DNA of 22,599 bases. Origin: Anaerolineae bacterium (lineage in GTDB: Bacteria > Chloroflexota > Anaerolineae > 4572-78 > J111). The notes beneath the pieces are model-generated. The model made no database searches, was not told the DNA's origin, and saw only the letters and a list, made by a program, of their open reading frames with translations. The DNA is taken from NCBI GenBank assembly GCA_020433835.1, contig JAGRBY010000041.1:1-22599 (forward strand), given 5' to 3'. Made by a program: the position numbers and the translations under genes. Shown here piece after piece: positions 3,792-17,170 of the stretch (its first letter is position 1; the number at the start of each line of letters is the position of its first letter).

Positions 3792-3850
3792 GAAAACCTC
3801 TCTAACAAAAATACTTTTGGATACGGCAACCTTCTTGATCTTACTGAAGA

Positions 3851-3878
3851 TAAATATTAAAACAAGTTAAATAGACAA
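3851..3878 (-). promoter_or_regulatory. Possible promoter for the GH128-like gene
   Basis: Read on the minus strand, TTGTCT (3873-3878) and TATTTA (3851-3856) are separated by 16 bases in an AT-rich stretch, about 60 bases upstream of the hydrolase ATG. The match is weak in an AT-rich background and is offered only as a candidate. Confidence 0.3.
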
Positions 3879-3918
3879 AGTGCATAAAAAGCAAAAGTTA
3901 ATCACTATTCATAGGCAA

Positions 3919-3947
3919 TTGCCAAGATAAATAAACAAAGGTATAGT
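3919..3947 (+). promoter_or_regulatory. Sigma70-like promoter for the flippase operon
   Basis: TTGCCA (3919-3924), a 17-base spacer, then TATAGT (3942-3947) make a close match to a housekeeping -35/-10 pair. Transcription would begin near 3954, about 20 bases before the ATG at 3977. It would leave almost no leader before the TTG at 3959, which argues for the ATG as the start. This would drive the long rightward run of glycan genes. Confidence 0.5.
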
Positions 3948-3976
3948 GCAACGTACTATTGCTTACACATATAACG

Positions 3977-6532
3977 ATGAAAAATCTTATTTCGATTGCA
4001 GCTCGAAATTCCTTTTTTAGCACGTTCGGCAAGCTGGGCGTCAAAATTCTTTCATTTGCCTTTACCATTTTTATCATTCGCTGGTTGGGCGATGCGGACT
4101 ATGGGCAATATGTTATCATTTGGTCATACGTAAGTATCTTTGCCATGTTGTCCGATGCCGGCTTGAATATGTATGCCATTCGCGAAATTGCCAAGCATCA
4201 ATATGGCAGTCAATTTATCGCTGGCAACATTATTGTTTTGCGTCTGGGATTAGCTGTAGTTACGATAATACTTATCAACGTATCCGCATGGTTGGCGGGG
4301 TACTCTACTCAATTTATCGAATACATCCTTATCGCCAGTCTCATTTTATTACTTTACGCTATACAAGACCCCTTTGATGCTATTCTTCAAGCCTATGAAC
4401 GTTTTGATTTATCTGCCTTCAGTGTTATTATTGGGCAGCTTGCCTTTGTTATAGTGGGTTCTATCTTATTACTAATGGGCTGGCACGTTTTCGGGCTAAT
4501 TATTGCTGGGCTGGTCAATGTAATTGTTTCGGCAATAAGCGCATGGTGGATGATTCGACAAGCCTATGCATCCAGTTTGCATTGGCAGTTAACTCCTAGC
4601 CGATGGTGGAGCTTTCTTCGCACCTCTTTTCCGTTTGGATTGATTAAAATATGGTTGAGCTGGTCCTTAAAAATTGATATTGTAATTTTATCATGGTTTT
4701 GGTTTGAGCAGATGGCCGGCTGGTATGGTGCAGCTTATGCTATTGTTTCGGGAATAACGGTTATCTCAACATCAATCAATGCCGCGCTGTACCCATCGCT
4801 CAGTCGCCAAAATGCCGAAAATGCCACCAGTCTGCCCCAAATTTACCGCCATGTGTTGAAATACCTTTTGATTTTGTCATTGCCTATCGCGGCGGGCGTA
4901 TTTCTCACGGCAAATAAATGGGTTGGGCTTTTATACGGTCATGAGTTTAAACCGACAGCCGTAGTTTTGTCCATCCTCATCCTTTCCGTGCCATTACTCT
5001 TTATCTCCGAATTTTTTCGGTATGCGATGTTAGCCACTAACCGAGAACATATTGCTGTAAGAGAGTTAGGCTGGGCGGTATGTCTTAATGTGTTGCTTAA
5101 TCTCTGGTGGATTCCCCGTTATGGTTTTGTAGCTGCCTCAATTATTACTGTTATATCTGAAGCAGTGTTAGTCTTTTTATACTTATGGCAGTTGAGAAAC
5201 GAGGTAGGATTTTTTACATTTTTGAAAATTGTGGCCAAACCTTTGCTGGCCACAATAGGGATGACGATAATTATTGCAGAATTTTCTACAAATAGCTTAC
5301 TTGTGCAGGTAATCTTGGGAGGAATTACTTACACAGCCTTAATTTGGCTTTTGGGGAGCCTTAACTCTGAAGATTTTTGGATATTGTTTAGCGATCCATC
5401 CAAGCCATACGGAGGAGAAATGATTAATTCCAAAAAACAGCAACCTGACCACCCAGTATTCATAAGTGTATTTATCTTGGTTTACAATACTGAAAAATTT
5501 ATAGACCAAGCGATACAAAGTGTTTTACACCAAACTTATCAACACTTTGAACTCATCATCGTCGATGACGGCTCAACAGATAATACCAAAGACGTTTTAG
5601 AAAAATATGCCAATCACCCGAAAATGCAAATTTTTTATAACAAACAAAACCGTGGCATATCCCCCTCATGGAACTTCGCTATAAAACAATGCCATGGCGA
5701 ACTTATCGCCAAACTTGATGCCGATGACTTCTACGAACCAGACCAAATGGCAACCGTCGTTAAATTTTATCAAGAGCATCCCCAAGTAGGCTTTATTTTT
5801 TCAGGATTAAATCTGGTTTACCCCGATGGTCGTCGCGAACCCGAAATGGTATTTCTCAAAAATTGGGTGCGCGAGCGACAAGAATTTTTACCGACACTCC
5901 TTCGTCTATGTGTGGTCAGAGCGCCCACGGTTTTTGTTAATCGAGACTGTTACCAAAAGTTGGATGGAGTTATAGAGGCAATGACGCTCCATTCCGATTG
6001 GGAATTGTGGGTTAAAATAGCGGCGCATTACCCGGTGGGCTACATAGCACAGTGTTTGGCTAATTATCGAATGAGCCATGGTACAAATGTAACGGCCCTA
6101 GCGGCCATCGACGGACGCAGTATGCATGATATTCGGCTTTGGTTAGATTTGCTTAACCACAATAAACTACCTTACACATTAACAAAAGCTGAACTCACGC
6201 AATTTAGGTGGGGTATTTACGAATTAGAAATGCATTTTGCGGCTAAATCTGCCTACTATCAGCAGATAGAATTGCAAAAAACATATACCACCTTTGCCGA
6301 AGAAATTTTACCCAGCCGTTTACCTGAGGCTGAAATGATTAAAATGCGTCAGGTTCACACCCATCTGCATCAAGGTATCTTTGCCTTTCGCGATAGAAAA
6401 CTAAAAGAAGCCCGTCGTTACTTTTTAAAGGCCATTCGATCAGGTCCAAAATATTGCAAAGCCCCCTGGATTTGGAGTAAATTGCTACTTACGTTGCTCG
6501 GTCGAACCAAATGGGGCGTTTTATACAAGTAA
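3977..6532 (+). CDS. Wzx-type polysaccharide flippase fused to a GT2 glycosyltransferase
   Basis: An 851-residue protein made of two complete modules. Residues 1 to about 470 are a multi-pass membrane domain of the MOP/polysaccharide-synthase flippase family: the N-terminus ARNSFFSTFGKLGVKILSF, then IRWLGDADYGQY, and roughly 12-14 hydrophobic segments. It would move a lipid-linked oligosaccharide across the inner membrane. From about residue 482 a GT2 enzyme follows (FISVFILVYNTEKF, IIVDDGSTDNT, the D581-A-D583-D584 metal motif, and HSDWELW as the acceptor/base region). It ends in a helical tail with a TPR-like sequence (ARRYFLKAIRSGP). ATG 3977 is chosen over an in-frame TTG at 3959 because it fits the promoter and the family N-terminus. 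The junction contains a strong Shine-Dalgarno and an in-frame ATG at 5420, so the GT2 may also be made separately. These modules are normally separate genes. Confidence 0.87.
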   Translation: MKNLISIAARNSFFSTFGKLGVKILSFAFTIFIIRWLGDADYGQYVIIWSYVSIFAMLSDAGLNMYAIREIAKHQYGSQFIAGNIIVLRLGLAVVTIILINVSAWLAGYSTQFIEYILIASLILLLYAIQDPFDAILQAYERFDLSAFSVIIGQLAFVIVGSILLLMGWHVFGLIIAGLVNVIVSAISAWWMIRQAYASSLHWQLTPSRWWSFLRTSFPFGLIKIWLSWSLKIDIVILSWFWFEQMAGWYGAAYAIVSGITVISTSINAALYPSLSRQNAENATSLPQIYRHVLKYLLILSLPIAAGVFLTANKWVGLLYGHEFKPTAVVLSILILSVPLLFISEFFRYAMLATNREHIAVRELGWAVCLNVLLNLWWIPRYGFVAASIITVISEAVLVFLYLWQLRNEVGFFTFLKIVAKPLLATIGMTIIIAEFSTNSLLVQVILGGITYTALIWLLGSLNSEDFWILFSDPSKPYGGEMINSKKQQPDHPVFISVFILVYNTEKFIDQAIQSVLHQTYQHFELIIVDDGSTDNTKDVLEKYANHPKMQIFYNKQNRGISPSWNFAIKQCHGELIAKLDADDFYEPDQMATVVKFYQEHPQVGFIFSGLNLVYPDGRREPEMVFLKNWVRERQEFLPTLLRLCVVRAPTVFVNRDCYQKLDGVIEAMTLHSDWELWVKIAAHYPVGYIAQCLANYRMSHGTNVTALAAIDGRSMHDIRLWLDLLNHNKLPYTLTKAELTQFRWGIYELEMHFAAKSAYYQQIELQKTYTTFAEEILPSRLPEAEMIKMRQVHTHLHQGIFAFRDRKLKEARRYFLKAIRSGPKYCKAPWIWSKLLLTLLGRTKWGVLYK
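5411..5422 (+). promoter_or_regulatory. Internal Shine-Dalgarno and ATG at the flippase/GT2 junction
   Basis: GGAGGAG (5411-5417) lies directly before ATG 5420, in frame with the fused gene. It is the strongest ribosome-binding site seen in the window and sits exactly where an independent GT2 gene would start. The codon just before it (5408-5410) is TAC, one base away from TAA or TAG. Confidence 0.6.
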
Positions 6533-6543
6533 AAATCGATAAT

Positions 6544-7521
6544 ATGAGCCATTCATTACGAATAGATCCCGTATCGTCTCCATCAAAAAATCATCAATTT
6601 ACAAATCGTCCCGGCGTGTCGATTATTATTCCGGCATTTAATGAGCAAAATGGGATAAATGGTGTCTTGACCCAACTGCATCACACAATGATGAACTTTG
6701 GCGAAACGTATGAAATCATTGTTGTTGATGACGGCTCAGTCGATGAGACTGCTGCTCAGGTTGATCCCAAAAAAAATCGACTCCTACGCCATTCTACCAA
6801 TCGAGGCTATGGAGCAGCTCTAAAAACAGGTATCCGCCACGCTGCCTACAACATTATTGCCATGACCGATGCCGACGGTACATATCCTAATGACTGCATC
6901 CCTGATCTACTGCAAATTCTGCGTCAGGGAGAGTGTGACATGGTCGTAGCGGCTCGTACCGGAGAACAGGTATTTATCCCTTGGCTACGTCGGCCCGCCA
7001 AATGGGCCATCACCCGGTTAGCCGAATTTGTGGCAGGGCAATCCATTCCAGACCTCAACTCTGGCCTACGACTCTATCGCCGAACAACCGTGTTCCAATT
7101 TCTAGATCTATTGCCCAACGGCTTCTCATTTACAACAACTATCACCTTAGCCATGTTAAGCAATGGTTATCTGGTGAGGTATGAACCCATTAATTACCAC
7201 CCCCGCATTGGCCGTTCAAAAATACGGCCTATTGCCGATACACTTAATTTTATTGGCTTGATCTTACGGATTGCCCTATACTTTGCTCCCTTAAAAATCT
7301 TTTTACCACTGGGAATCCTATTGCTCATGGTCGGTATTTTCTGGGGGCTGTATACAAAATTCGCTTTTGGTCAACTGGCCGACGTATCAACGATGATGAT
7401 CATCATGTCGGCCTTTCAAATATCAGCATTAGGTTTGCTGGCCGAACTCATCAATAAACGGCTACCAGCCCCCTTAAAAACCTTAGAGCAATTACCTTTT
7501 CACAAGGAAGATTATGACTAG
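6544..7521 (+). CDS. GT2 polyprenyl-phosphate glycosyltransferase (DPM1/GtrB-like)
   Basis: A 325-residue GT2 enzyme with C-terminal membrane helices. The catalytic domain shows VSIIIPAFNEQNG, IIVVDDGSVDET, the GYGAAL loop, the metal-binding D109-A-D111 in TDADGTYP, and GLRLYRR further on, all typical of enzymes that transfer a sugar to polyprenyl phosphate. Two to three hydrophobic segments follow from about residue 235. The likely role is to make the polyprenyl-phosphate sugar used as donor by the GT-C enzymes encoded downstream at 11286 and 14228. The ATG at 6544 is preferred because it clears the previous gene by 11 bases and begins close to the conserved domain. An in-frame ATG at 6511 would add 11 residues and overlap the flippase-GT2 gene. 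The 3' end overlaps the next gene by 8 bp. Confidence 0.9.
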   Translation: MSHSLRIDPVSSPSKNHQFTNRPGVSIIIPAFNEQNGINGVLTQLHHTMMNFGETYEIIVVDDGSVDETAAQVDPKKNRLLRHSTNRGYGAALKTGIRHAAYNIIAMTDADGTYPNDCIPDLLQILRQGECDMVVAARTGEQVFIPWLRRPAKWAITRLAEFVAGQSIPDLNSGLRLYRRTTVFQFLDLLPNGFSFTTTITLAMLSNGYLVRYEPINYHPRIGRSKIRPIADTLNFIGLILRIALYFAPLKIFLPLGILLLMVGIFWGLYTKFAFGQLADVSTMMIIMSAFQISALGLLAELINKRLPAPLKTLEQLPFHKEDYD

Positions 7522-9247
7522 TTTACGGGATGTCTACGCCCAAAAGGCCTTAAACCAAATTCCGCGTCTTTTAGGCAATTTAGATCGCAACCCATTTTCA
7601 CCAACCTATGGCTGCTTTCATCGAGATTATTGGCTCGATAAAACTTCCGACTTTCCTGATGCGGTTCGTCAATTTGCCGTTCATGCTCTGGCGCTGGTTT
7701 ACAAACACCATTTTCCTGGCAGCCCCTACCAAGGCCAACCCAAAATTAGAGATTGGGCCATTGCTGCGATTGATTATTGGACTAAAATCCAACACGGGGA
7801 TGGCTCTTTTGACGAATTTTATCCCTACGAACGCGGTTGGGTTGGGCCGTCGGCTTTTACATGCTTTACCATCATCGAAACTTATCGCCTGTTGCAAGAT
7901 GAAATACCGGCGGAGGTCCAAGAGCGAACCTTAGCCGCTATTCGGCGCACCGCTTATTTCATTGCAGCCGGCGAGTCAGAAGAGGATCACCTCGCTAACC
8001 ATCACGCTATGGCCTGTTTGGCGGTTTGGAAAGCCTATATGCTTTTAGGCGATACCGAATTAAAATCCGGCTTCAACCGCCTATGGCAGGGGTTCTTGAC
8101 ATATCACAACGCCCGCGAGGGATGGTCTCGTGAGTATGACGGTGTTGATCCCGGTTACCTTTCGGCCACGGTTTCCTTTTTCGGTAAAATCTATCAGGAA
8201 AACCCTGATCCGGACATTTTTAAGATTTTACAGCAATCGGTCGAGTTTGCGGCTTACTTTGTATACCCCAACGGTTATTACGCCGGCAGCATGGGCAGCC
8301 GCAATACGCTTCATTTTTACCCCCATGGCTTTGAAATCCTGGCCGATAAAATACCTATGGCCGCCGCCGTAGCCGAGAGGTTACTGCAAGGGCTGGCCGA
8401 AAACGCCTTGGTACCACCCGACATCGTCTCCGACCGTTATGTTGTTTATCGTGTGCCGGAATTCTTACAATCCTACCTTGATTACCAGCCGCGCCCTCAA
8501 ACACTGCCTCAACTGCCATATCAATGCGATGACATGCGGAAATACTTTCCAGAGTCGCGCATCTTCGTTGAAACCAAAGCCAAAACTTACCAAATCGCCA
8601 ATTTGGCCAAGGGCGGGGTCGTCAAGTTATTTGATCGCCATAGCAAACAGCTTCTGCTCAACGACTGTGGTCTCATAGGAAAGTTAGCCGATGGTCGAAT
8701 CATTTCAAGCCAGTGGATCGATCCCGACTACGACAGCCACGTTACGCAAACCGGATGGGAAGTGAGCGGCCATTTTCATTTGGTTCCATCAAACAAACTA
8801 TTCAATCTATCCAAAAATATTCTATTTCGATCTACCTTGCTAACCTTAGGCTGGAACAAAACTTTCTCCCATTCGCTCAAAGGCAATATCCGTAAGGTGT
8901 TAATTCTTGGGCAGCGCGCTGTACCGGTGCGCTTTCGGCGACAGGTGACATTTACCAATGATCAATTCACTATCCAGGACGATATCACTATCGATGGTGA
9001 TGTTAAACTCGATGCGTTGTCTGTAGGGGATGAGTTTTTTGTGCGTTACGTTCCCCAGAGTCGTTATTTTCAATTTCAAGAATTGGCTGTTGCAGGGTAT
9101 CCGCTCACGCAATCATTGCTCGATATTCTCAATCATCAACGACAATTATCAATTATTCAGACCTTAGCCTTAGATGGTACACCTTGTCCCCAAATTCGCA
9201 GACGAATTTCATCTCCGCAACGACCGATGCCATCCCCCGATCAATAG
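7514..9247 (+). CDS. Cytosolic alpha/alpha-toroid protein, heparinase II/III-like
   Basis: A 577-residue protein with no signal peptide or membrane segment. Residues 1 to about 330 are helical, with repeated aromatic-rich helix pairs such as FHRDYWLDKTSDFPD, QHGDGSFDEFYP, EEDHLANHHAMACLAVW and EYDGVDPGYLSATVSF. This layout is that of an (alpha/alpha) toroid. From about residue 350 the sequence becomes beta-rich (YQIANLAKGGVVKLFD, RRQVTFTNDQFTIQDDI), like the beta-sandwich after the toroid in heparinase II/III-type polysaccharide lyases. The conserved-looking NHH and Tyr/His residues are candidate active-site positions. The whole-protein match is only architectural, so lyase, hydrolase or epimerase activity is open. 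AAGGAAG (7504-7510) precedes the ATG, which overlaps the preceding stop (ATGACTAG). Lying between a GT2 and a sulfotransferase, it probably acts on the glycan or its precursor. Confidence 0.6.
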   Translation: MTSLRDVYAQKALNQIPRLLGNLDRNPFSPTYGCFHRDYWLDKTSDFPDAVRQFAVHALALVYKHHFPGSPYQGQPKIRDWAIAAIDYWTKIQHGDGSFDEFYPYERGWVGPSAFTCFTIIETYRLLQDEIPAEVQERTLAAIRRTAYFIAAGESEEDHLANHHAMACLAVWKAYMLLGDTELKSGFNRLWQGFLTYHNAREGWSREYDGVDPGYLSATVSFFGKIYQENPDPDIFKILQQSVEFAAYFVYPNGYYAGSMGSRNTLHFYPHGFEILADKIPMAAAVAERLLQGLAENALVPPDIVSDRYVVYRVPEFLQSYLDYQPRPQTLPQLPYQCDDMRKYFPESRIFVETKAKTYQIANLAKGGVVKLFDRHSKQLLLNDCGLIGKLADGRIISSQWIDPDYDSHVTQTGWEVSGHFHLVPSNKLFNLSKNILFRSTLLTLGWNKTFSHSLKGNIRKVLILGQRAVPVRFRRQVTFTNDQFTIQDDITIDGDVKLDALSVGDEFFVRYVPQSRYFQFQELAVAGYPLTQSLLDILNHQRQLSIIQTLALDGTPCPQIRRRISSPQRPMPSPDQ

Positions 9248-9289
9248 AGCACAGATCGCGGGCAGTCCAACATTTCGGGATGCACCTTT

Positions 9290-10168
9290 ATGGATCAACT
9301 CACCTTTGCCTTTAGAAACTTTTCCGACAAATTAATAAAAGGGGTAAAACACCCTTCAACATTCAAATTTTACTGGCAAACTTATGTTCTCAATAAACTG
9401 AACAAAGTAGCGCCGAATATTTATATCGTCTCCTACCCAAAATGTGGGCGAACCTGGCTTCGCTTTATTCTTCAACAATATTTACAGCAGCAGTATCCTC
9501 AGTTACCGCAATTTGAAAACCGTTTTCTGCTCCGCTTGCCTCAAGACATGATACTTAAATTTGAACATGATCAGGGCAATTGGGTACCCGCCCCGCCTAA
9601 AGTTTCGCAACTTTCATTTAATATTACCAAGTATACGGGCAAAAAAGTGATTTTTATGGTCCGTGATCCCCGCGATGTTCTTATTTCAAGTTGGTATCAT
9701 TTAAGATACAGAGAAAATATTTATCAAGGCAGCCTTTCAGAGTTTATTCGCGATGATTTAGTGGGTATTCATAAAGTCGTTGCGTTTATGAATTTGTGGC
9801 TTGATAATCGTCATGTTCCCGCCGATTTTTTACTTATCAGCTATGAACAATTCCATGCAGACTCGGCCACGCATTTTCGACAGATACTGGAATTTATGAA
9901 CATTGCCGTTGATGACTCAGCGGTAGCAATGGCTACCCAGTCCGGCTCCTTTAGGGAAATGAAAAAAGTTGAAATCGAGCAAGGCAGCGACGAACCCTGG
10001 CTGCGCCCCGGCTCTACAAATTCAGAAAACTCCATGAAAATCCGTAAAGGAAAAATCGGCGGCTTCAAAGAAGAACTCTTAACCGAGGATATCGCTTACC
10101 TCAATTCAGTCATCCAGACCGAGCTTTCCCCTCTTTTACCCTATCATCAAATTCCAAAGCATGACTAA
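9290..10168 (+). CDS. PAPS-dependent sulfotransferase
   Basis: A 292-residue cytosolic-type sulfotransferase (Sulfotransfer_1 family) that would move a sulfuryl group from PAPS to a hydroxyl or amine of a carbohydrate or lipid. The 5'-phosphosulfate loop is YPKCGRTW (residues 49-56; K51 is the expected catalytic lysine). The 3'-phosphate site is VRDPRDVLISSWYH (R125 and the Ser133/134 pair). The C-terminal RKGKIGGFK (from R252) matches the PAPS-binding RKGxxGDWK motif, with Gly-Phe in place of Asp-Trp. No membrane segment is present, so the acceptor must be available in the cytoplasm, for example a lipid-linked oligosaccharide before flipping. It lies 42 bases after the toroid gene and overlaps the next gene by 8 bp (ATGACTAA). 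The family call is firm; the acceptor is unknown. Confidence 0.9.
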   Translation: MDQLTFAFRNFSDKLIKGVKHPSTFKFYWQTYVLNKLNKVAPNIYIVSYPKCGRTWLRFILQQYLQQQYPQLPQFENRFLLRLPQDMILKFEHDQGNWVPAPPKVSQLSFNITKYTGKKVIFMVRDPRDVLISSWYHLRYRENIYQGSLSEFIRDDLVGIHKVVAFMNLWLDNRHVPADFLLISYEQFHADSATHFRQILEFMNIAVDDSAVAMATQSGSFREMKKVEIEQGSDEPWLRPGSTNSENSMKIRKGKIGGFKEELLTEDIAYLNSVIQTELSPLLPYHQIPKHD

Positions 10169-11111
10169 AACCCGTTTACTCATCTTGGTTGGGAAGCTTG
10201 CCTTAGGGCTTATTCTGTTAATCGCCCTTATTGAAGTGACGGGCAGTTTACAAGATGCCCGCGAACTATTGGACCTGAATTGGTATCAGGCCTGGCCGGT
10301 ACTGGGGTGGACGCTGCTGCTCAATGCTATAGCTACCTGGCGCTGGCAGATTCTTATCCGCCAATTTGGACTACCCCATATTCCCTTTCCCAGTTTGCTA
10401 AAAAGCGTGGTCGTGGGCCGATTGGTCGGTAACTCCACCAGTCAGGTTATTGGTGATATTAGTGCCCGATCAATTTATTTAAAATCTCATGGTGTTGACC
10501 TTAAACAGGGTGGATTAACTATTATTGCCGACAAACTGTTTGAGGTTGCTTTTGCACTTGCTGTAAGCATTGTTTTTTTTGTTTCAATCATAACAGGGCA
10601 ATTTGCAGTCTGTCCGGGGTGTTTTCCCTTAGCCACATTAGGTGTGTTTGCAGCAGCCACCTGGAGTTTACCACAACTGCTTAAACTGTTTGGTCATTTG
10701 CCTTGGATTGCGCAACGTATCACGCCACTTCCCGATTTTCTTTTCGATCATACTCGCTGGTTGCTAGCGGGGTTAACAATTATTAAATATGGTGTAGTGG
10801 TATTACGTTATGATTTTATCCTACGCTTTTGTGGAATTACGAATTTAAGCTTAGTATCGGTCTTCTTTGGTACCGCTTGGGCACAAGTTGGCTTAATGCT
10901 AGCTTTTACGCCCGGCGGGCTAGGTTTTGTAGAAGCAGGTTGGACGGGGGCCTTAATCTATTTTTCTGTCGCGAATTCGGCTATCTCAAAATTTCTTATT
11001 GCCCAACGGCTACTGATCACCCTTTCTGTAATTTTATTGGCTCCTTTAACCATGGCATTCGAGACGTTCGCAAAATTTAATCTCAACAAAAAAGAGCGAC
11101 GTACTACGTAA
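10161..11111 (+). CDS. LPG-synthase-TM / UPF0104 family membrane protein (flippase-like)
   Basis: A 316-residue integral membrane protein with about eight hydrophobic segments. The pattern WRWQILIRQFG, then VVVGRLVGNSTSQVIGDISARSIYL, then GGLTIIADKLFEV, and near the end AFTPGGLGFVEAGW is that of the lysylphosphatidylglycerol-synthase transmembrane domain family. These stand-alone members occur widely in glycan and glycolipid loci. They are usually described as flippase-like, and their biochemical role is unsettled. It overlaps the sulfotransferase stop by 8 bp, so the two are probably translated together. A plausible role is moving a lipid-linked sugar, such as the product of the GT2 at 6544, across the membrane. 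That is inferred from context only. Confidence 0.85.
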   Translation: MTKTRLLILVGKLALGLILLIALIEVTGSLQDARELLDLNWYQAWPVLGWTLLLNAIATWRWQILIRQFGLPHIPFPSLLKSVVVGRLVGNSTSQVIGDISARSIYLKSHGVDLKQGGLTIIADKLFEVAFALAVSIVFFVSIITGQFAVCPGCFPLATLGVFAAATWSLPQLLKLFGHLPWIAQRITPLPDFLFDHTRWLLAGLTIIKYGVVVLRYDFILRFCGITNLSLVSVFFGTAWAQVGLMLAFTPGGLGFVEAGWTGALIYFSVANSAISKFLIAQRLLITLSVILLAPLTMAFETFAKFNLNKKERRTT

Positions 11112-11182
11112 GGATCGTGAATACAATAACTTCCGCATTTGCGTTTAGGGATTTGGTAAATAGGTATTGGTAAGTGGTTATT

Positions 11183-11224
11183 CAATCTCCAGTCTCCAAT
11201 TACCAGTTACCAATTACAAATTAC
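11183..11224 (+). repeat. Tandem heptamer repeat in an intergenic spacer
   Basis: Six successive 7-base units: CAATCTC, CAGTCTC, CAATTAC, CAGTTAC, CAATTAC, AAATTAC. They alternate A/G at the third base and change from CTC to TAC at the end. Just upstream (about 11160-11180) the opposite orientation appears (GGTATTGGTAAGTGG), so the spacer can fold into an imperfect hairpin. It fills the largest gap in the rightward run (11112-11285), where no clear promoter was found. It resembles the short tandem heptamer repeats known from cyanobacteria. Confidence 0.75.
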
Positions 11225-11285
11225 CCGACAGAATTGGGTAAGTTAATTAATTCTCATTCCTAAGTAAGTTATTGCCAGAGACACT

Positions 11286-14219
11286 ATGCAATTACTATTT
11301 CTCCTTGATGTTCTTCTCATTTTTACAAGCGCATATCTATTTATTGCCATGTGCCGATTGCCTTCATTGGCCGCCTCAATAGTCGGTCTATGGATAATGG
11401 CTTATGGCAGTATAGTTTTAATAGGTTTAATAGTCGCCGAATTGGGCTTCCTCAATGCCCCATTTGCTCATTTTATTGGGCATCTGCTGCTCCTGGCAGT
11501 AATAGCATTGATTTGGCACCTACGCAAACGGCCTCGTATTAACTTTTCTCCTTTAGCCCATCAATTTATCCCTCGCAGCCTTATCTCAACACTGCGAACC
11601 GCGCCCGATGTTTTCGTCTTGGTTGCTGGCACAAGCTTATTGTACTTGTTAGGTATCTATCTCATTTGGTCGCTGCCTTACGGTAGTCATGATAGTATGG
11701 CCTACCACCTGGCGCGTATTGGCTACTGGTTGCAGCACAACTCCCTACGCCCCTATCCTACCTATGAAATTCTACAAACCAGCTTTCCGGTTAACTCATC
11801 ATTGACCATGCTCTGGCTGATCCTCTTTTGGGGCAGCGATCAACTGGTGGGCCTGGTTCAATGGTTGGCTGTGTTAGGCACCGTTCCAGTCATTTATGGG
11901 CTGGCGCGGCTCATTGGCGGATCACGCCGCCAATCACTCTTTGCTGCGCTGTTGTGGCCAACTCTCCCGGTCGTTATTTTACAATCAACTACAACCCTCA
12001 ATGATATGGTTACCGCCTTTCTGGCCACGACCACCACCTACTTCTTACTCTTTGGCATACGCCGCCATTCTTACAGCGCTCTACTACTATCAGGTCTAGC
12101 CTTAGGCTTGGCTTTTGGCACTAAAGGGACAATTTATATGTTCCTTCCATCCCTCTTAGTAGCAGGTCTGTTTTTTCTCGTAAAAGACCGATTGACTGCT
12201 CTGCGCCCGCTACTCTTTTGGGGTGGAGCCTGCGCTACCGGGATATTACTTTTTGGCTTTTATATTTATTTCATTAACTTCGTAACCTATGCCAACCCTT
12301 TAGGCCCCCATGCCGAACGGGGCACGGCCACAGTAGCCAATCCCACACCGGAAACAATTGTCACCAATATAGCTCGCTATCTTTACCAAATGGCCGATAC
12401 AGCCGGGGTGCCTGCAAATTTTGTTGCAGCTATCCAACCCTCATTGGCACAGGCAGGTCATCGAACATTTGAAATATTTCATCTCGATCCGAACCTACCG
12501 GCAGCTACTCGCCCCACCACGGCTTTTACGTTTGATGGTTCACCCCCCAACTTGGCTAATGTTACCGAAATAGGCCCCTTAAAAAATCGAAATCATGAGG
12601 TTTTTGCCTGGTATGGTCCGTTGGGATTCCTTTTGTTTTTACCGGCTATCCTTTTTAGCCTCATTTTCGCACCGATCCGTGGTCAGTATGACCGTTGGTT
12701 GTTAGCTTTGATGGCAACCACCTACTTCTTTGTGCTGTGCTATCTTATGCGCTGGAGTCCCTATCGAGGCAGATTTATGGCCACAGCTATGGCAGTATCC
12801 ACACCATTATTAATTATCTATTTCCAACGTGGATGGGGTGGTAGAATTTTACGTTGGGGAATAGTTAGCCTGACCTTATTTTTTGCTTTTTGGACAGCCA
12901 CCCATAATTTAGCTAAACCTCTACTCGGGCCGACTTCTATTTTTGATGTTGACCGTGCTGCGCAACGTGGTTTTTACGGCGGCCAGATTGATTTTGTCCG
13001 GGCCATAGAAACGTATTTGCCATCTGATGCCCGTGTTGGGTTGGTTGGCTACCAGTTGTGGGAGTATCCATTATTCGGCCCCAACTTCAGCCGAACTATC
13101 AAACCGCTCTTTCCTCCGCCAGATAAAATCGACGCTCAAAGCTTGAAACAAAATCAGCTTAACTATTTAGTTGTCAGTAGCTACCTTGTTAACTTGCAGC
13201 CAGATATCGCTGACGACATCCGATTACTAACTCAAGGCCATGGCTGGAAAATTTTCACTCCGGTTGAAAATTTTCCAAACTGGCTGACATGGGCAACAAA
13301 TCAATCAACTCCCCAAACACAGTCAACAAATCAATCACTTTTTACAGTTAGTAACCCGATCCGTGGTTCAACTCAAATTGACCTGCACCTTCCTCCCCAC
13401 GGTGTTGAACAGCTCGGACAACAGCCGGTGTTATGGCTTGGTGAGGAGCAAAATAATAGTATTGAGGGTATAATCACATCCGCTCGCAATCAATCCGTGC
13501 AATTGGCTCTTGACACTCTACCTTTAGTTGACAAAACATTACCTGTGGAGTTCACATTTTCCAACCCACAAGGTACCTGGACAGAAACCCGCTCACTCAA
13601 CGAACGAACCGAAATACAATTTGAGTTGCCTCTGCAAGAAGGCGAAAATAGCTTTACTTTAATTACGCCGGCTGCCTCTGATAATAGCGGCAGTCAACAG
13701 CAAAAACCAACATTACTAATAAGCCAAATAGAACTCGACTCGATTGCCGCCACCGGAGCCTCAACTCTGGGACCGACGGCCAATCCGTTGGTGCTGGTCG
13801 ATACAGCTTTAGCCAACTCAGTTGGTGTAGAACCGGACGCTCAAATTCCCTGGCCTCTCGACATCGAAAATGATCGCCCATTTCTGTGGTTAGGTCAGGG
13901 TGAGGCAGGTGGACTAGGCGGCACCATTCTATCGAATACAACCCAGCCGGTAGTGCTAAACTTTGACGTTTCACCAGGACCCGCTCGGTCAGACCAACAG
14001 CGCACCGTTCAAATGGTTAATCAGAGCGGCGATGAGGTCGTCACTCAAACAGAAACCTTCAACCAGGCTACCGTTATAAATTTTCCGGTTCAACTTCAAG
14101 CCGGCCGCAATCATTTCCAATTTACGGTTTTAGACGAACCCACGCAGCTTGCACAAGCGGATGGGGAGACACGCCCTTTACTTGTACGTTTGAACCAAAT
14201 TACGATTAGAGCACCATAA
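11286..14219 (+). CDS. GT-C membrane glycosyltransferase with two C-terminal beta domains
   Basis: A 977-residue protein. Residues 1 to about 560 are a multi-pass membrane domain of the PMT/ArnT-like GT-C superfamily (RgtA/B/C/D-like). The first large outer loop has GSHDSMAYHLARIGYW, with D136 as the likely catalytic aspartate, followed by STTTLNDMVTAFLATT. Such enzymes use polyprenyl-phosphate sugars and act outside the membrane. A mixed region (about 580-690) leads into two similar beta-rich units that begin PVLWLG (714) and PFLWLG (865). These would sit outside the cell and may bind or present the acceptor glycan. Most family members end near 500-700 residues, so this tail is an addition. 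ATG 11286 follows a 174-base spacer with the heptamer repeat. The sugar and acceptor are unknown. Confidence 0.82.
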   Translation: MQLLFLLDVLLIFTSAYLFIAMCRLPSLAASIVGLWIMAYGSIVLIGLIVAELGFLNAPFAHFIGHLLLLAVIALIWHLRKRPRINFSPLAHQFIPRSLISTLRTAPDVFVLVAGTSLLYLLGIYLIWSLPYGSHDSMAYHLARIGYWLQHNSLRPYPTYEILQTSFPVNSSLTMLWLILFWGSDQLVGLVQWLAVLGTVPVIYGLARLIGGSRRQSLFAALLWPTLPVVILQSTTTLNDMVTAFLATTTTYFLLFGIRRHSYSALLLSGLALGLAFGTKGTIYMFLPSLLVAGLFFLVKDRLTALRPLLFWGGACATGILLFGFYIYFINFVTYANPLGPHAERGTATVANPTPETIVTNIARYLYQMADTAGVPANFVAAIQPSLAQAGHRTFEIFHLDPNLPAATRPTTAFTFDGSPPNLANVTEIGPLKNRNHEVFAWYGPLGFLLFLPAILFSLIFAPIRGQYDRWLLALMATTYFFVLCYLMRWSPYRGRFMATAMAVSTPLLIIYFQRGWGGRILRWGIVSLTLFFAFWTATHNLAKPLLGPTSIFDVDRAAQRGFYGGQIDFVRAIETYLPSDARVGLVGYQLWEYPLFGPNFSRTIKPLFPPPDKIDAQSLKQNQLNYLVVSSYLVNLQPDIADDIRLLTQGHGWKIFTPVENFPNWLTWATNQSTPQTQSTNQSLFTVSNPIRGSTQIDLHLPPHGVEQLGQQPVLWLGEEQNNSIEGIITSARNQSVQLALDTLPLVDKTLPVEFTFSNPQGTWTETRSLNERTEIQFELPLQEGENSFTLITPAASDNSGSQQQKPTLLISQIELDSIAATGASTLGPTANPLVLVDTALANSVGVEPDAQIPWPLDIENDRPFLWLGQGEAGGLGGTILSNTTQPVVLNFDVSPGPARSDQQRTVQMVNQSGDEVVTQTETFNQATVINFPVQLQAGRNHFQFTVLDEPTQLAQADGETRPLLVRLNQITIRAP
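13425..14141 (+). repeat. Two homologous beta-sandwich-like units in the GT-C protein
   Basis: Residues about 714-799 and 865-952 share an order of motifs: P(V/F)LWLG, then G-x-I with a Ser/Asn turn, then Q-x-V-x-L, an aromatic or hydrophobic strand ending in a polar run (TETRSLNE and VTQTETFNQ), then I-x-F-x-(L/V)-x-LQ-(E/A)-G-(E/R)-N. The similarity is at protein level, so the duplication is old. The linker between them (about 800-864) is Ser/Thr/Pro-rich. Confidence 0.6.
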
Positions 14220-14227
14220 CATTCCGC

Positions 14228-14944
14228 ATGATGAACGCTGTCGTAAAGCAAATGAGAGATATAAATCGAGAAACATTCGTTTCTACATCAACAATCGAAT
14301 ATGCATTGGTTCTGGTATGTCTAATCTTGATATTCTTCGGGGTATTCAATTCGGCGCTACAGGCACAATTTGCGCTTATAGATGACCACACCATCCTAAC
14401 AGTAGCTTTATCTAAACAGCCTATTTGGGAAACAATTCAATATGCCTTCACCTCCAACATTGCCACTGGAGGTCGATTTAAACCAGGTCATGTTTTAACC
14501 CCATTCATAGGGATAGCACTGGTAAGGACAAACCCAAAGCTATGGCATCTGGCAATGATCTTGGCCGGCCTATTGACCTGCTTGTTTTTCTACGCCTCAC
14601 TTCGCAACCTCGGTCTTGATATCATTTCATCCCTGTTTTTTATTTTGTTATTTACTATCGTCGGCGCTCAAAACAGCATCTGGTATCGGTTACTGACCGG
14701 TGAAACGTGGGGTATACTTTTTATAGCCATTGCGGTCTGGGCGGGTGTCTATGCCGCCAAAACCAGCAAGTCACCAATTTGGGACATCGTTTTTGTCGCG
14801 GCACTGTTCCTGGCTGCAAACTTCAAAGGAAGCTTCGTTCTAACAATTCCGGCCTTACTACTGCTACGCTGGCTACTGCCGGATTATCACTCAGTTCATT
14901 CAACCCGAGCCGCTGGTACAGCAATTTTGAGCCTGCCGATGTAA
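14228..14944 (+). pseudogene. GT-C-like membrane glycosyltransferase, N-terminal part (frameshifted)
   Basis: A 238-residue frame holding the N-terminal half of a membrane protein. It has a first hydrophobic helix (residues about 25-45), the outer-loop motif LIDDHTIL (D52, D53, H54) typical of the GT-C catalytic loop, then GGRFKPGHVL and four to five further helices up to LLLLRWLLPDY. It stops at TAA 14942-14944 in the middle of the membrane domain. The rest of the protein continues in the frame one base back, up to 15726, so the gene has a single -1-type shift somewhere in 14880-14940. The whole gene would be about 499 residues. It may be a real inactivating mutation or a base error in the assembly. 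It starts 8 bases after the previous gene. The family call is moderate. Confidence 0.65.
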
Positions 14945-15726
14945 TTTTGATCAGCTATTCTATTCTTATTTTCGCGATACTGCTCTTTCGCTATCGTGAA
15001 CCGAGTGGGCATAAACTGCGCTTGATGATTTTAGCTATAACAGCTTTCGGCCTAGTTTGGACACTACCTCAACTCGTGCTACACAGCCACGGTATGGAGG
15101 GTCACTATCGCGTACCGGCGGTTATCGGCTGGTTTGTTTCCGCCAGCTTAGGAATGCATCTTCTCTGGCGACAGCGTCGTTGGATTTTGTGGGGCGGAAC
15201 CAGCGTGCTTTTTACAATTTTGCTTGCACTAAATTTAGGGCCAACTGTAGCTCGGTTCAGTTACTATACCGCTGACTCTTTAGCCTTAAACCAGATGACT
15301 GACTACCTTGTCCAACACGTCAACAAGCATCAAGCTATTGTCATTAGTCTAAATCCGATAACCCATCAAGAAAGTGCCTTCTCTCTACAATCACATTTAA
15401 ACTTTGTCGGGTTAAACAGTCCTATATATCTGCTTCCAGTCTACCAAACAGAGCATCAGCAAAACCATCCTCTCGTTGAGCAGCTCATCACAAACGCTGG
15501 TTTTGCCGAATTTGCTGATCTGGAAAAATTAGCCGCTAATGAGGTTGGGGCAATCATCGGAATTGACGCACCCAATGAGATAACGCAGATTCCGTCTTGG
15601 TATCTCCCGGCTGAGTGGGAGCGAGTTGTATTCTCAGCACCTTATTACACACTATCTTTAAAAAAGTTAGACTCTGTTAAACTGAATAATTTTGACTATA
15701 CTATCTTGACGCCTATAGAGCAATGA
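14887..15726 (+). pseudogene. GT-C-like membrane glycosyltransferase, C-terminal part (frameshifted)
   Basis: This frame continues the broken gene. It holds four hydrophobic helices (from VILISYSILIFAILLF to SVLFTILLALNLG) followed by a soluble domain of about 150 residues (LNQMTDYLVQHVN through EVGAIIGID to YTLSLKK), the usual end of a GT-C glycosyltransferase. Upstream of about 14887 the same frame is open back to an ATG at 14707, but that stretch is Cys- and basic-rich, unlike a membrane protein, and is out-of-frame noise. If translated alone, the first in-frame start inside the real part would be TTG 14947. The TGA at 15724 overlaps the ATG of the following GT2 gene. Coding quality stays high to the end, so the break is recent or an artefact. 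Confidence 0.65.
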
Positions 15727-16586: not shown

Positions 16587-16823
16587 ATGGATGATCTATT
16601 GAACAGGATCACCTTTGATAAAGAAATACTTGGTGGCAAACCACTTATTCGAGGCATGCGCATTTCTGTTGAGATGATTCTCGAGCTATTAGCTAAGGGA
16701 GCAACCACATCAGAAATCTTGGAGGATTATCCCGAACTTGAAACGGACGACATCAGAGCGACACTGATTTATGCTCATCACCTTATCTCTGGCGAGACAG
16801 TCCATGTCAGAGTTACAGCGTGA
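16587..16823 (+). CDS. DUF433 family antitoxin
   Basis: A 78-residue protein matching the DUF433 family: ITFDKEILGGKPLIRGMRISVEMILELLAKG, then EILEDYPELETDDIRATLIYA. The family folds as a small winged-helix-like domain and is found next to PIN-like toxins, as here. GAGGG (16578-16582) precedes the ATG, giving it its own ribosome-binding site in a region where most genes lack one. It overlaps the next gene by 4 bp (GTGA), the usual antitoxin-first arrangement. It probably binds and neutralises the DUF5615 protein and may repress the pair. Confidence 0.88.
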   Translation: MDDLLNRITFDKEILGGKPLIRGMRISVEMILELLAKGATTSEILEDYPELETDDIRATLIYAHHLISGETVHVRVTA

Positions 16824-17170
16824 AAATTCTTGTCGATGTTAACGCCAGCGGAGCAATAGCGAATTGGTTAGAGAGTATGGGGCATGACATCGTCAGAGCA
16901 AGTACAAAAGATCCGCGCATGTCAGATGATGACATCTTAACTTGGGCTGTGCAGGAAAATAGAGTCATCATAACAACCGACAAAGACTTTGAGGAAATGG
17001 TTTGGCGAGCACAGAGACCACATAGAGGCATTTTGCGTTTAGAAAATTTACCGCGTCAGGAAAGAAAACTATTGCTTGAAGAAGCCATCGAACACTATCA
17101 ACAAGAATTAGAAAATGGAGCTATTGTTATAGCTCAGCAGAAAAAATTCCGCGTTAGAAAATCTCGCTAG
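16820..17170 (+). CDS. DUF5615 PIN-like toxin
   Basis: A 116-residue protein of the PIN-like DUF5615 family, a predicted ribonuclease. It begins MKILVDVNAS, where most members have an Asp-Glu-Asn start; here D6 is kept but the following acidic residue is Val7. It continues with a helix and the strand VIITTDKDF (D54, D56), the second acidic cluster of the metal site, then HRGILRLENLP. The Lys/Arg-rich C-terminus ends the domain. Start GTG 16820 overlaps the antitoxin stop. It lies 6 bases before the next glycosyltransferase gene, so it is embedded in the glycan operon. The toxin role is a family-level inference, and the Val7 change leaves its activity uncertain. Confidence 0.85.
   Translation: MKILVDVNASGAIANWLESMGHDIVRASTKDPRMSDDDILTWAVQENRVIITTDKDFEEMVWRAQRPHRGILRLENLPRQERKLLLEEAIEHYQQELENGAIVIAQQKKFRVRKSR

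What the first reader, a model, noticed from the sequence alone, without database searches (positions are those of the whole stretch)
5390..5440. Flippase-GT2 fusion with a lost stop codon and a surviving internal ribosome-binding site
The flippase domain reaches its natural end (a short acidic tail after the last helix), and the next codon, TAC at 5408-5410, is one base from TAA or TAG. Directly after it come GGAGGAG and an in-frame ATG (5420) that would start a complete GT2 enzyme. The simplest reading is two adjacent genes joined by one stop-to-Tyr change, which physically tethers a cytosolic glycosyltransferase to the exporter while possibly still allowing free GT2 to be made. A sequencing error at that base would give the same picture.
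Basis: partly seen in the sequence, partly recalled or inferred. Interest (0 to 1): 0.75.

Follow-up and report, generated by a model that had tools for sequence, protein, structure and literature searches.

The report
Ancient flippase-glycosyltransferase fusion, possible internal start
A gene from an uncultured bacterium, probably of the class Anaerolineae, makes one protein that joins a sugar-lipid exporter to a sugar-adding enzyme; the join is old and shared by relatives rather than a fresh mutation or sequencing error, and a strong ribosome-binding site in the linker may also let the cell make the enzyme half alone.

Summary
The letters are as reported: one open frame (ATG 3977 to stop 6532, 851 aa), TAC 5408-5410, GGAGGAG 5411-5417, in-frame ATG 5420. 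The history proposed for them is not supported. 27 other fusions of the same layout were found (49-87% identity, 94-100% of the query covered); the closest reads TAT (Tyr) at the same codon, and no other of the 26 aligned fused proteins has Tyr there. So this is neither a fresh stop-to-Tyr change nor a base error. Trees place the window well inside a fused clade. Separate genes occur in an outgroup (in the order GT2, flippase) and again nested among fused ones, so old fusion with later fission is the simplest reading. The internal ribosome site is real as a pattern but is no visible relic: of three fused relatives whose DNA could be read, only the 87% one has it. It is the strongest Shine-Dalgarno match of 16 sites examined in the window, lies in a disordered linker with weak RNA structure, and adjoins a stretch of raised synonymous conservation; such stretches also occur in 3 of 22 other gene pairs. 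I give about 0.4 that it makes free GT2 as a second product. Untested.

The parts
3977..6532 (+). Flippase-GT2 fusion gene, 851 aa
   Evidence: 27 homologues of the same layout
3977..5389 (+). MOP-type flippase part (residues 1-471), MurJ/Wzx/MATE fold
5390..5461 (+). Linker, residues 472-495; 473-491 have pLDDT under 50
   Evidence: variable in length and letters among fused relatives
5408..5410 (+). TAC (Tyr478), the supposed lost stop; TAT in L001
5411..5417 (+). GGAGGAG, Shine-Dalgarno-like, pairing energy -10.2 kcal/mol with the anti-SD (anti-SD letters recalled)
   Evidence: identical in L001
5420..5422 (+). ATG (Met482), candidate internal start of a 370-aa GT2
   Evidence: stand-alone relatives start near the matching place
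5462..6532 (+). GT2 part (residues 496-851) with DDGSTD and LDADD motifs
5198..5617 (+). Stretch of raised synonymous conservation against L001
   Evidence: limits chosen after seeing the profile

Best explanation
The gene encodes a bifunctional membrane protein: a MurJ/Wzx-like MOP flippase for a lipid-linked sugar, joined by a disordered linker to a GT-A (GT2) glycosyltransferase with its motifs intact, so that the enzyme that adds a sugar to the lipid-linked unit is held at the cytosolic mouth of the exporter. The join is old; the simplest reading is one early fusion in one order of Anaerolineae with later fission in some lineages. In the window's own small clade a strong ribosome-binding site and ATG stand in the linker; their most likely single use is to make some free GT2 besides the fusion. 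Shown by calls: the fusion, its spread over homologues down to 49% identity, its nesting in trees, the linker, the site as a sequence. Inferred: one origin, cytosolic side, joint action on one lipid-linked substrate. The confidence below is for the old fusion; internal initiation alone I put at about 0.4.
For: Fusion real and old: 25 homologues covering 94-100% of the query (P0002 and P0026 are marked partial) plus 2; AF2 model with two well-formed domains and a linker of pLDDT under 50; MOP fold and GT-A fold. Tyr codon TAT in L001, with frame and site kept. Concatenated tree of 28 fused rows and 2 split pairs: the split pair P0244+P0126 lies inside the fused set, branch support 97/93; flippase tree: stand-alone P0028 is sister to fused P0013, 98/98. 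P0244 and P0126 are taken as one locus only because both come from the same source with a longest contig of 22048 bases. Internal start: strongest SD of 16 sites examined in the window (-10.2; next -7.6), -10.0 in L001; Gly codon GGA (17% of Gly codons) used twice; RNA around the start is weaker than at about 91% of gene positions; synonymous identity 46 of 51 codons in 5252-5431 against 411 of 662 over the gene, permutation p 0.001 for 45- and 60-codon windows, while amino-acid change is not lower there (20 of 140 codons in 5198-5617 against 81 of 664). A pattern taken for the 16S 3' end with CCTCC (recalled letters, not checked to be 16S) was found in 3 of 5 related genomes searched.
Against: For internal initiation: 15- and 20-codon windows give p 0.585 and 0.117; the top 45-codon window ends just before the SD; equally extreme peaks (p 0.002 or less) occur in 3 of 22 other gene pairs; only one relative with readable DNA has the site; neighbouring genes mostly lack strong SDs, so SD strength may say little here; another internal ATG of the window (6940) has a stronger SD; Met in the linker is not enriched over the family (16 of 30 rows, 13.0 expected); the pattern for the 16S end was not found in L001's own genome G001. 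For one origin with later fission: many inner branches are unresolved, the outgroup pair is a long branch (2.18), and four 'stand-alone' GT2 proteins lie on contigs of 1.0-2.2 kb and P0027 on 2.2 kb, so may be cut. For the flippase function: MATE drug transporters fit the model about as well as WzxE.
Confidence: 0.8

Rival explanations
1. Recent fusion of two adjacent genes by a stop-to-Tyr change, with the old ribosome site left behind.
For: The flippase fold ends before the Tyr; a stand-alone flippase (P0244, 484 aa) and GT2 (P0126, 365 aa) exist in a relative.
Against: 27 fused homologues; TAT in L001; Tyr at that column in 2 of 26 fused rows only, read by eye; the outgroup pair of G108 has the opposite gene order; 250 of 851 codons are one step from TAA/TAG.
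Confidence: 0.03
2. The SD-like stretch is an elongation pause in the linker, giving the flippase time to insert before the GT2 is made, and not a start site.
For: SD-like elements were reported to trigger pauses in E. coli membrane proteins (PMC4359368, abstract and section list seen). The place, just after the last helix, suits it.
Against: That abstract places the pauses in the early stages of translation. A pause needs no ATG at start spacing; the window and L001 both keep the ATG.
Confidence: 0.2
3. The SD and ATG are chance and without effect; only the fusion protein is made.
For: Two of 68 internal ATGs in the window have SDs as strong; peaks of synonymous conservation are not rare (3 of 22); two sister sequences share most letters by descent; no linker Met enrichment.
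Against: Coincidence of strong SD, less used Gly codons, weak structure, linker position and raised synonymous conservation.
Confidence: 0.37
4. Sequencing or assembly error at base 5410.
For: None beyond possibility; no reads were available.
Against: Another assembly, 83% identical in DNA over the gene, has TAT there with the same frame; 27 fused homologues.
Confidence: 0.01

Closest known systems
MOP flippases Wzx/WzxE and MurJ (PF01943, PF13440)
   Same: Domain matches and fold of residues 1-471.
   Different: A GT2 enzyme follows on the same chain; no PDB chain matched the flippase half by sequence (E up to 0.01).
GT2 (GT-A) glycosyltransferases of polysaccharide clusters, e.g. the K4 chondroitin polymerase module, TuaG-like
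   Same: GT-A fold and DXD-type motif; best PDB sequence hit 2z87 E 3.7e-27; best NCBIfam hit TuaG 103.8 bits for the whole protein.
   Different: Tethered to a flippase; far under the TuaG cut-off of 400, and no listed NCBIfam cut-off is reached.
YfhO-flippase proteins of Chloroflexi (about 1400 aa, PF09586 + PF01943)
   Same: Flippase fused to another membrane-glycan part (P0276-P0281 and P0283, precomputed Pfam).
   Different: The partner is itself a large membrane protein, not a C-terminal soluble GT2; in the one read, L054, the flippase is C-terminal.
Genes-within-genes with internal initiation, e.g. RpnL/RpnS and Cas10d/Cas11d
   Same: A C-terminal part is made alone from an internal start in frame (PMC10327210, passages seen).
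   Different: Not shown here; the second product would be a free enzyme, not an antitoxin or complex subunit.

Membership tests
MOP flippase | Pfam PF01943/PF13440 above cut-off | tested here: met
   87.2 bits (cut 28.2) and 78.5 (cut 23)
MOP flippase | MOP fold | tested here: met
MOP flippase | Flips a lipid-linked sugar | not testable with these tools
   needs an assay
GT2 glycosyltransferase | PF00535 above cut-off | tested here: met
   112 bits (cut 23.3)
GT2 glycosyltransferase | DXD-type metal site | tested here: met
   LDADD at 580-584; D581 and D583 invariant in 26 fused rows
TuaG (NCBIfam NF047683) | Curated cut-off | tested here: not met
   103.8 bits (whole protein), 107.5 (GT2 part), cut-off 400
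Gene within a gene (internal initiation) | SD and in-frame start | tested here: met
Gene within a gene (internal initiation) | Site kept in relatives beyond near-identity | tested here: inconclusive
   kept in L001 (83% DNA identity over the gene); L002 and L003 have GTG with weak SD instead; no DNA at hand for the 75% relative P0003
Gene within a gene (internal initiation) | Second product seen | not testable with these tools
   needs proteomics or ribosome profiling

The most novel reading that the evidence does not exclude
An old flippase-GT2 fusion has, in one lineage, gained an internal ribosome site that makes the tethered and the free glycosyltransferase from one gene: a living intermediate between fused and split genes, which would explain how fission can occur in this family without loss of either function.
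Probability: 0.4. Interest if true: 0.55.

Novelty: new variant of a known kind. Interest (0 to 1): 0.4.

Why it matters
Flippases and the glycosyltransferases that build their cargo are usually treated as separate proteins working in sequence (general knowledge). A conserved covalent fusion suggests that a cytosolic sugar transfer and the flip can be coupled, and names the pair without a screen. If the internal start is real, the gene is also a dual-product case and a path by which fused genes may split again. Six of the seven named homologues among P0002-P0026 are called only 'glycosyltransferase', which hides the flippase half; the seventh (P0017) names both.

Tried and rejected
Tried: whole-genome look-up for the window (none held). 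Viral contigs: 4 loci, only weak GT2 similarity, no fusion. Enrichment of Met in the linker over the family: none. HSG25/HSG24 as a positive control for synonymous peaks next to a gene start: rejected, since in the peak at the 3' end 45 of 45 residues are the same and several downstream genes are near-identical between the two, so a recombination boundary explains it; as a negative control, the junction of that pair shows no peak (0.58 for 45 codons, rank 479 of 805). Sigma-70-like promoters in 3800-6600: 10 against a mean of 8.4 in shuffles, no signal. Literature: none of the titles and abstract starts listed (15 of 25 papers listed; 4 of 4) tells of a flippase-GT fusion; two searches returned none; one search returned one paper (PMC3412221, only the listing seen, on a Wzx flippase of Pseudomonas). 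The library is open-licence PMC only. One search gave 2 unrelated papers. PMC4039749, six passages seen, concerns network prediction. Fold searches: Foldseek, VIA-align; the structure was asked for and collected at 67.

Limits: two candidates per genome were scored and the printed list was cut, so 3 of 396 is a lower bound. (25 genomes) scored up to 38 each, at E up to 1e-110. Protein searches score at most about 8000 candidates and list part of the hits (120 of 127, 120 of 854). Rows left out: stand-alone proteins without a partner, and all outgroups but L030. One search skipped 8 near-identical pairs; some of its pairs may be paralogues.

Full report

Is it an error or a recent join? Very unlikely. 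The 87% relative L001 (MAG HKST-UBA12) has TAT at the same codon and the same GGA GGA GAA ATG after it. One search found 25 more fusions (49-87% identity, 94-100% of the query covered; P0002 and P0026 are marked partial); one search added P0241 and P0242. The linker varies in length and letters, and by eye Tyr stands at that column only in the window and P0002 of 26 fused rows. Being one base from TAA/TAG holds for 250 of 851 codons, so that observation carries little weight.

Who has it? In a class-wide draw of 396 genomes a match over both halves appeared in 3 (two candidates per genome scored, list cut). In the order of L001's genome, 25 genomes are held: 3 have the fusion (G001, G002, G003); G004 has a stand-alone GT2 of this type, with no flippase among 8 of 15 ORFs of the locus that were searched in Pfam; G108 has both genes separate and adjacent in the order GT2, flippase. 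In G108 a piece of a glycosyl hydrolase of the same Pfam family (PF11790) as the window's 2805-3791 gene lies next to the pair, which suggests a shared locus.

Direction of change. GT2 tree, 47 rows: fused and stand-alone labels need 7 changes, of which well-supported branches force 3; stand-alone P0130 is sister to fused P0131 and P0025 (100/99); four stand-alones (P0121, P0122, P0124, P0129) lie on contigs of 1.0-2.2 kb and may be cut. Flippase tree, 36 rows: 3 changes, 2 forced; G108's flippase is sister to 28 others (100/100), of which 26 are fused. Concatenated tree, 30 rows: the split pair P0244+P0126 lies inside the fused set (97/93), and the window groups with P0002, P0003 and P0004 (100/92 or better). 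One early fusion with at least one later fission is the simplest reading; repeated fusion is not excluded. The pairing of P0244 with P0126 rests on their shared source and contig length.

The internal site. Pairing with the anti-SD is -10.2 kcal/mol, the strongest of 16 sites examined in the window (15 ORF starts or alternatives, and this one; next -7.6); of the other 67 internal in-frame ATGs one, at 6940, pairs more strongly (-11.2). L001 gives -10.0; the HSG25 and HSG24 fusions (L002, L003) have no ATG there but a GTG with -4.0 and -4.7. So the site is not visible as ancestral in the readable DNA. Of 28 fused proteins (P0001-P0026, P0123, P0131), 12 have no Met in the 24 residues before the GT2 strand; over the 30 rows of that one search have one against 13.0 expected, so there is no enrichment. 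GGA is 17% of Gly codons in 12 window ORFs and used twice here; RNA around the ATG is weaker than at about 91% of positions in the gene.

Synonymous conservation. Against L001 the gene keeps 411 of 662 codons with unchanged residue, but 46 of 51 in 5252-5431. Permutation p is 0.001 for 45 and 60 codons, 0.003 for 30, 0.117 for 20 and 0.585 for 15. Amino-acid change is not lower there (20 of 140 codons in 5198-5617, against 81 of 664), so a recent recombination patch is a poor explanation; Fisher p for the ratio of residue to synonymous changes is 0.001 with limits chosen after the fact, and 0.08 and 0.11 for two narrower stretches. The top 45-codon window covers the end of the flippase part, just before the SD. 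Base rate: 3 of 22 other gene pairs have peaks with p of 0.002 or less (8 near-identical pairs skipped). The peak is suggestive, not proof.

Verdict. An old and conserved flippase-GT2 fusion, not found in the papers that I could search, with a candidate internal start seen in the window and its nearest relative. Confidence in the old fusion is high; dual product about 0.4.

Noticed in passing
L054 and other matches: A different flippase fusion seems common in this class: proteins of about 1400 aa with a YfhO-type part and a flippase (PF09586 + PF01943 in P0276-P0281 and P0283). At least 30 genomes listed have a flippase match in an open frame of 1300-1500 aa; these frames were not themselves domain-searched.
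   Followed up: partly
window 14228-15726: Two overlapping ORFs in different frames (238 and 339 aa) look like one broken membrane-protein gene; L001 has only two short similar pieces of it, between its genes.
   Followed up: no
window 6533-14345 against L001 2418-5195: Between shared flanks the two clusters carry different gene sets (GT2, sulfotransferase and others in the window; one PMT-like gene in L001): looks like a swapped cassette.
   Followed up: no
window 6511-6532: The next GT2 gene (6511-7521) has its ATG inside the last codons of the fusion, a 22-base overlap; L002 shows the same overlap (10532 against 10553).
   Followed up: no
window 16820-17170: A DUF5615/Mut7-C gene, of a kind seen in toxin-antitoxin pairs (recalled), sits inside the polysaccharide cluster.
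   Followed up: no
L002 8001-19209 against G003 contig 183: HSG25 and HSG24 differ over the fusion but are near-identical in several genes downstream, with the change near the 3' end of the fusion: looks like a recombination boundary.
   Followed up: partly
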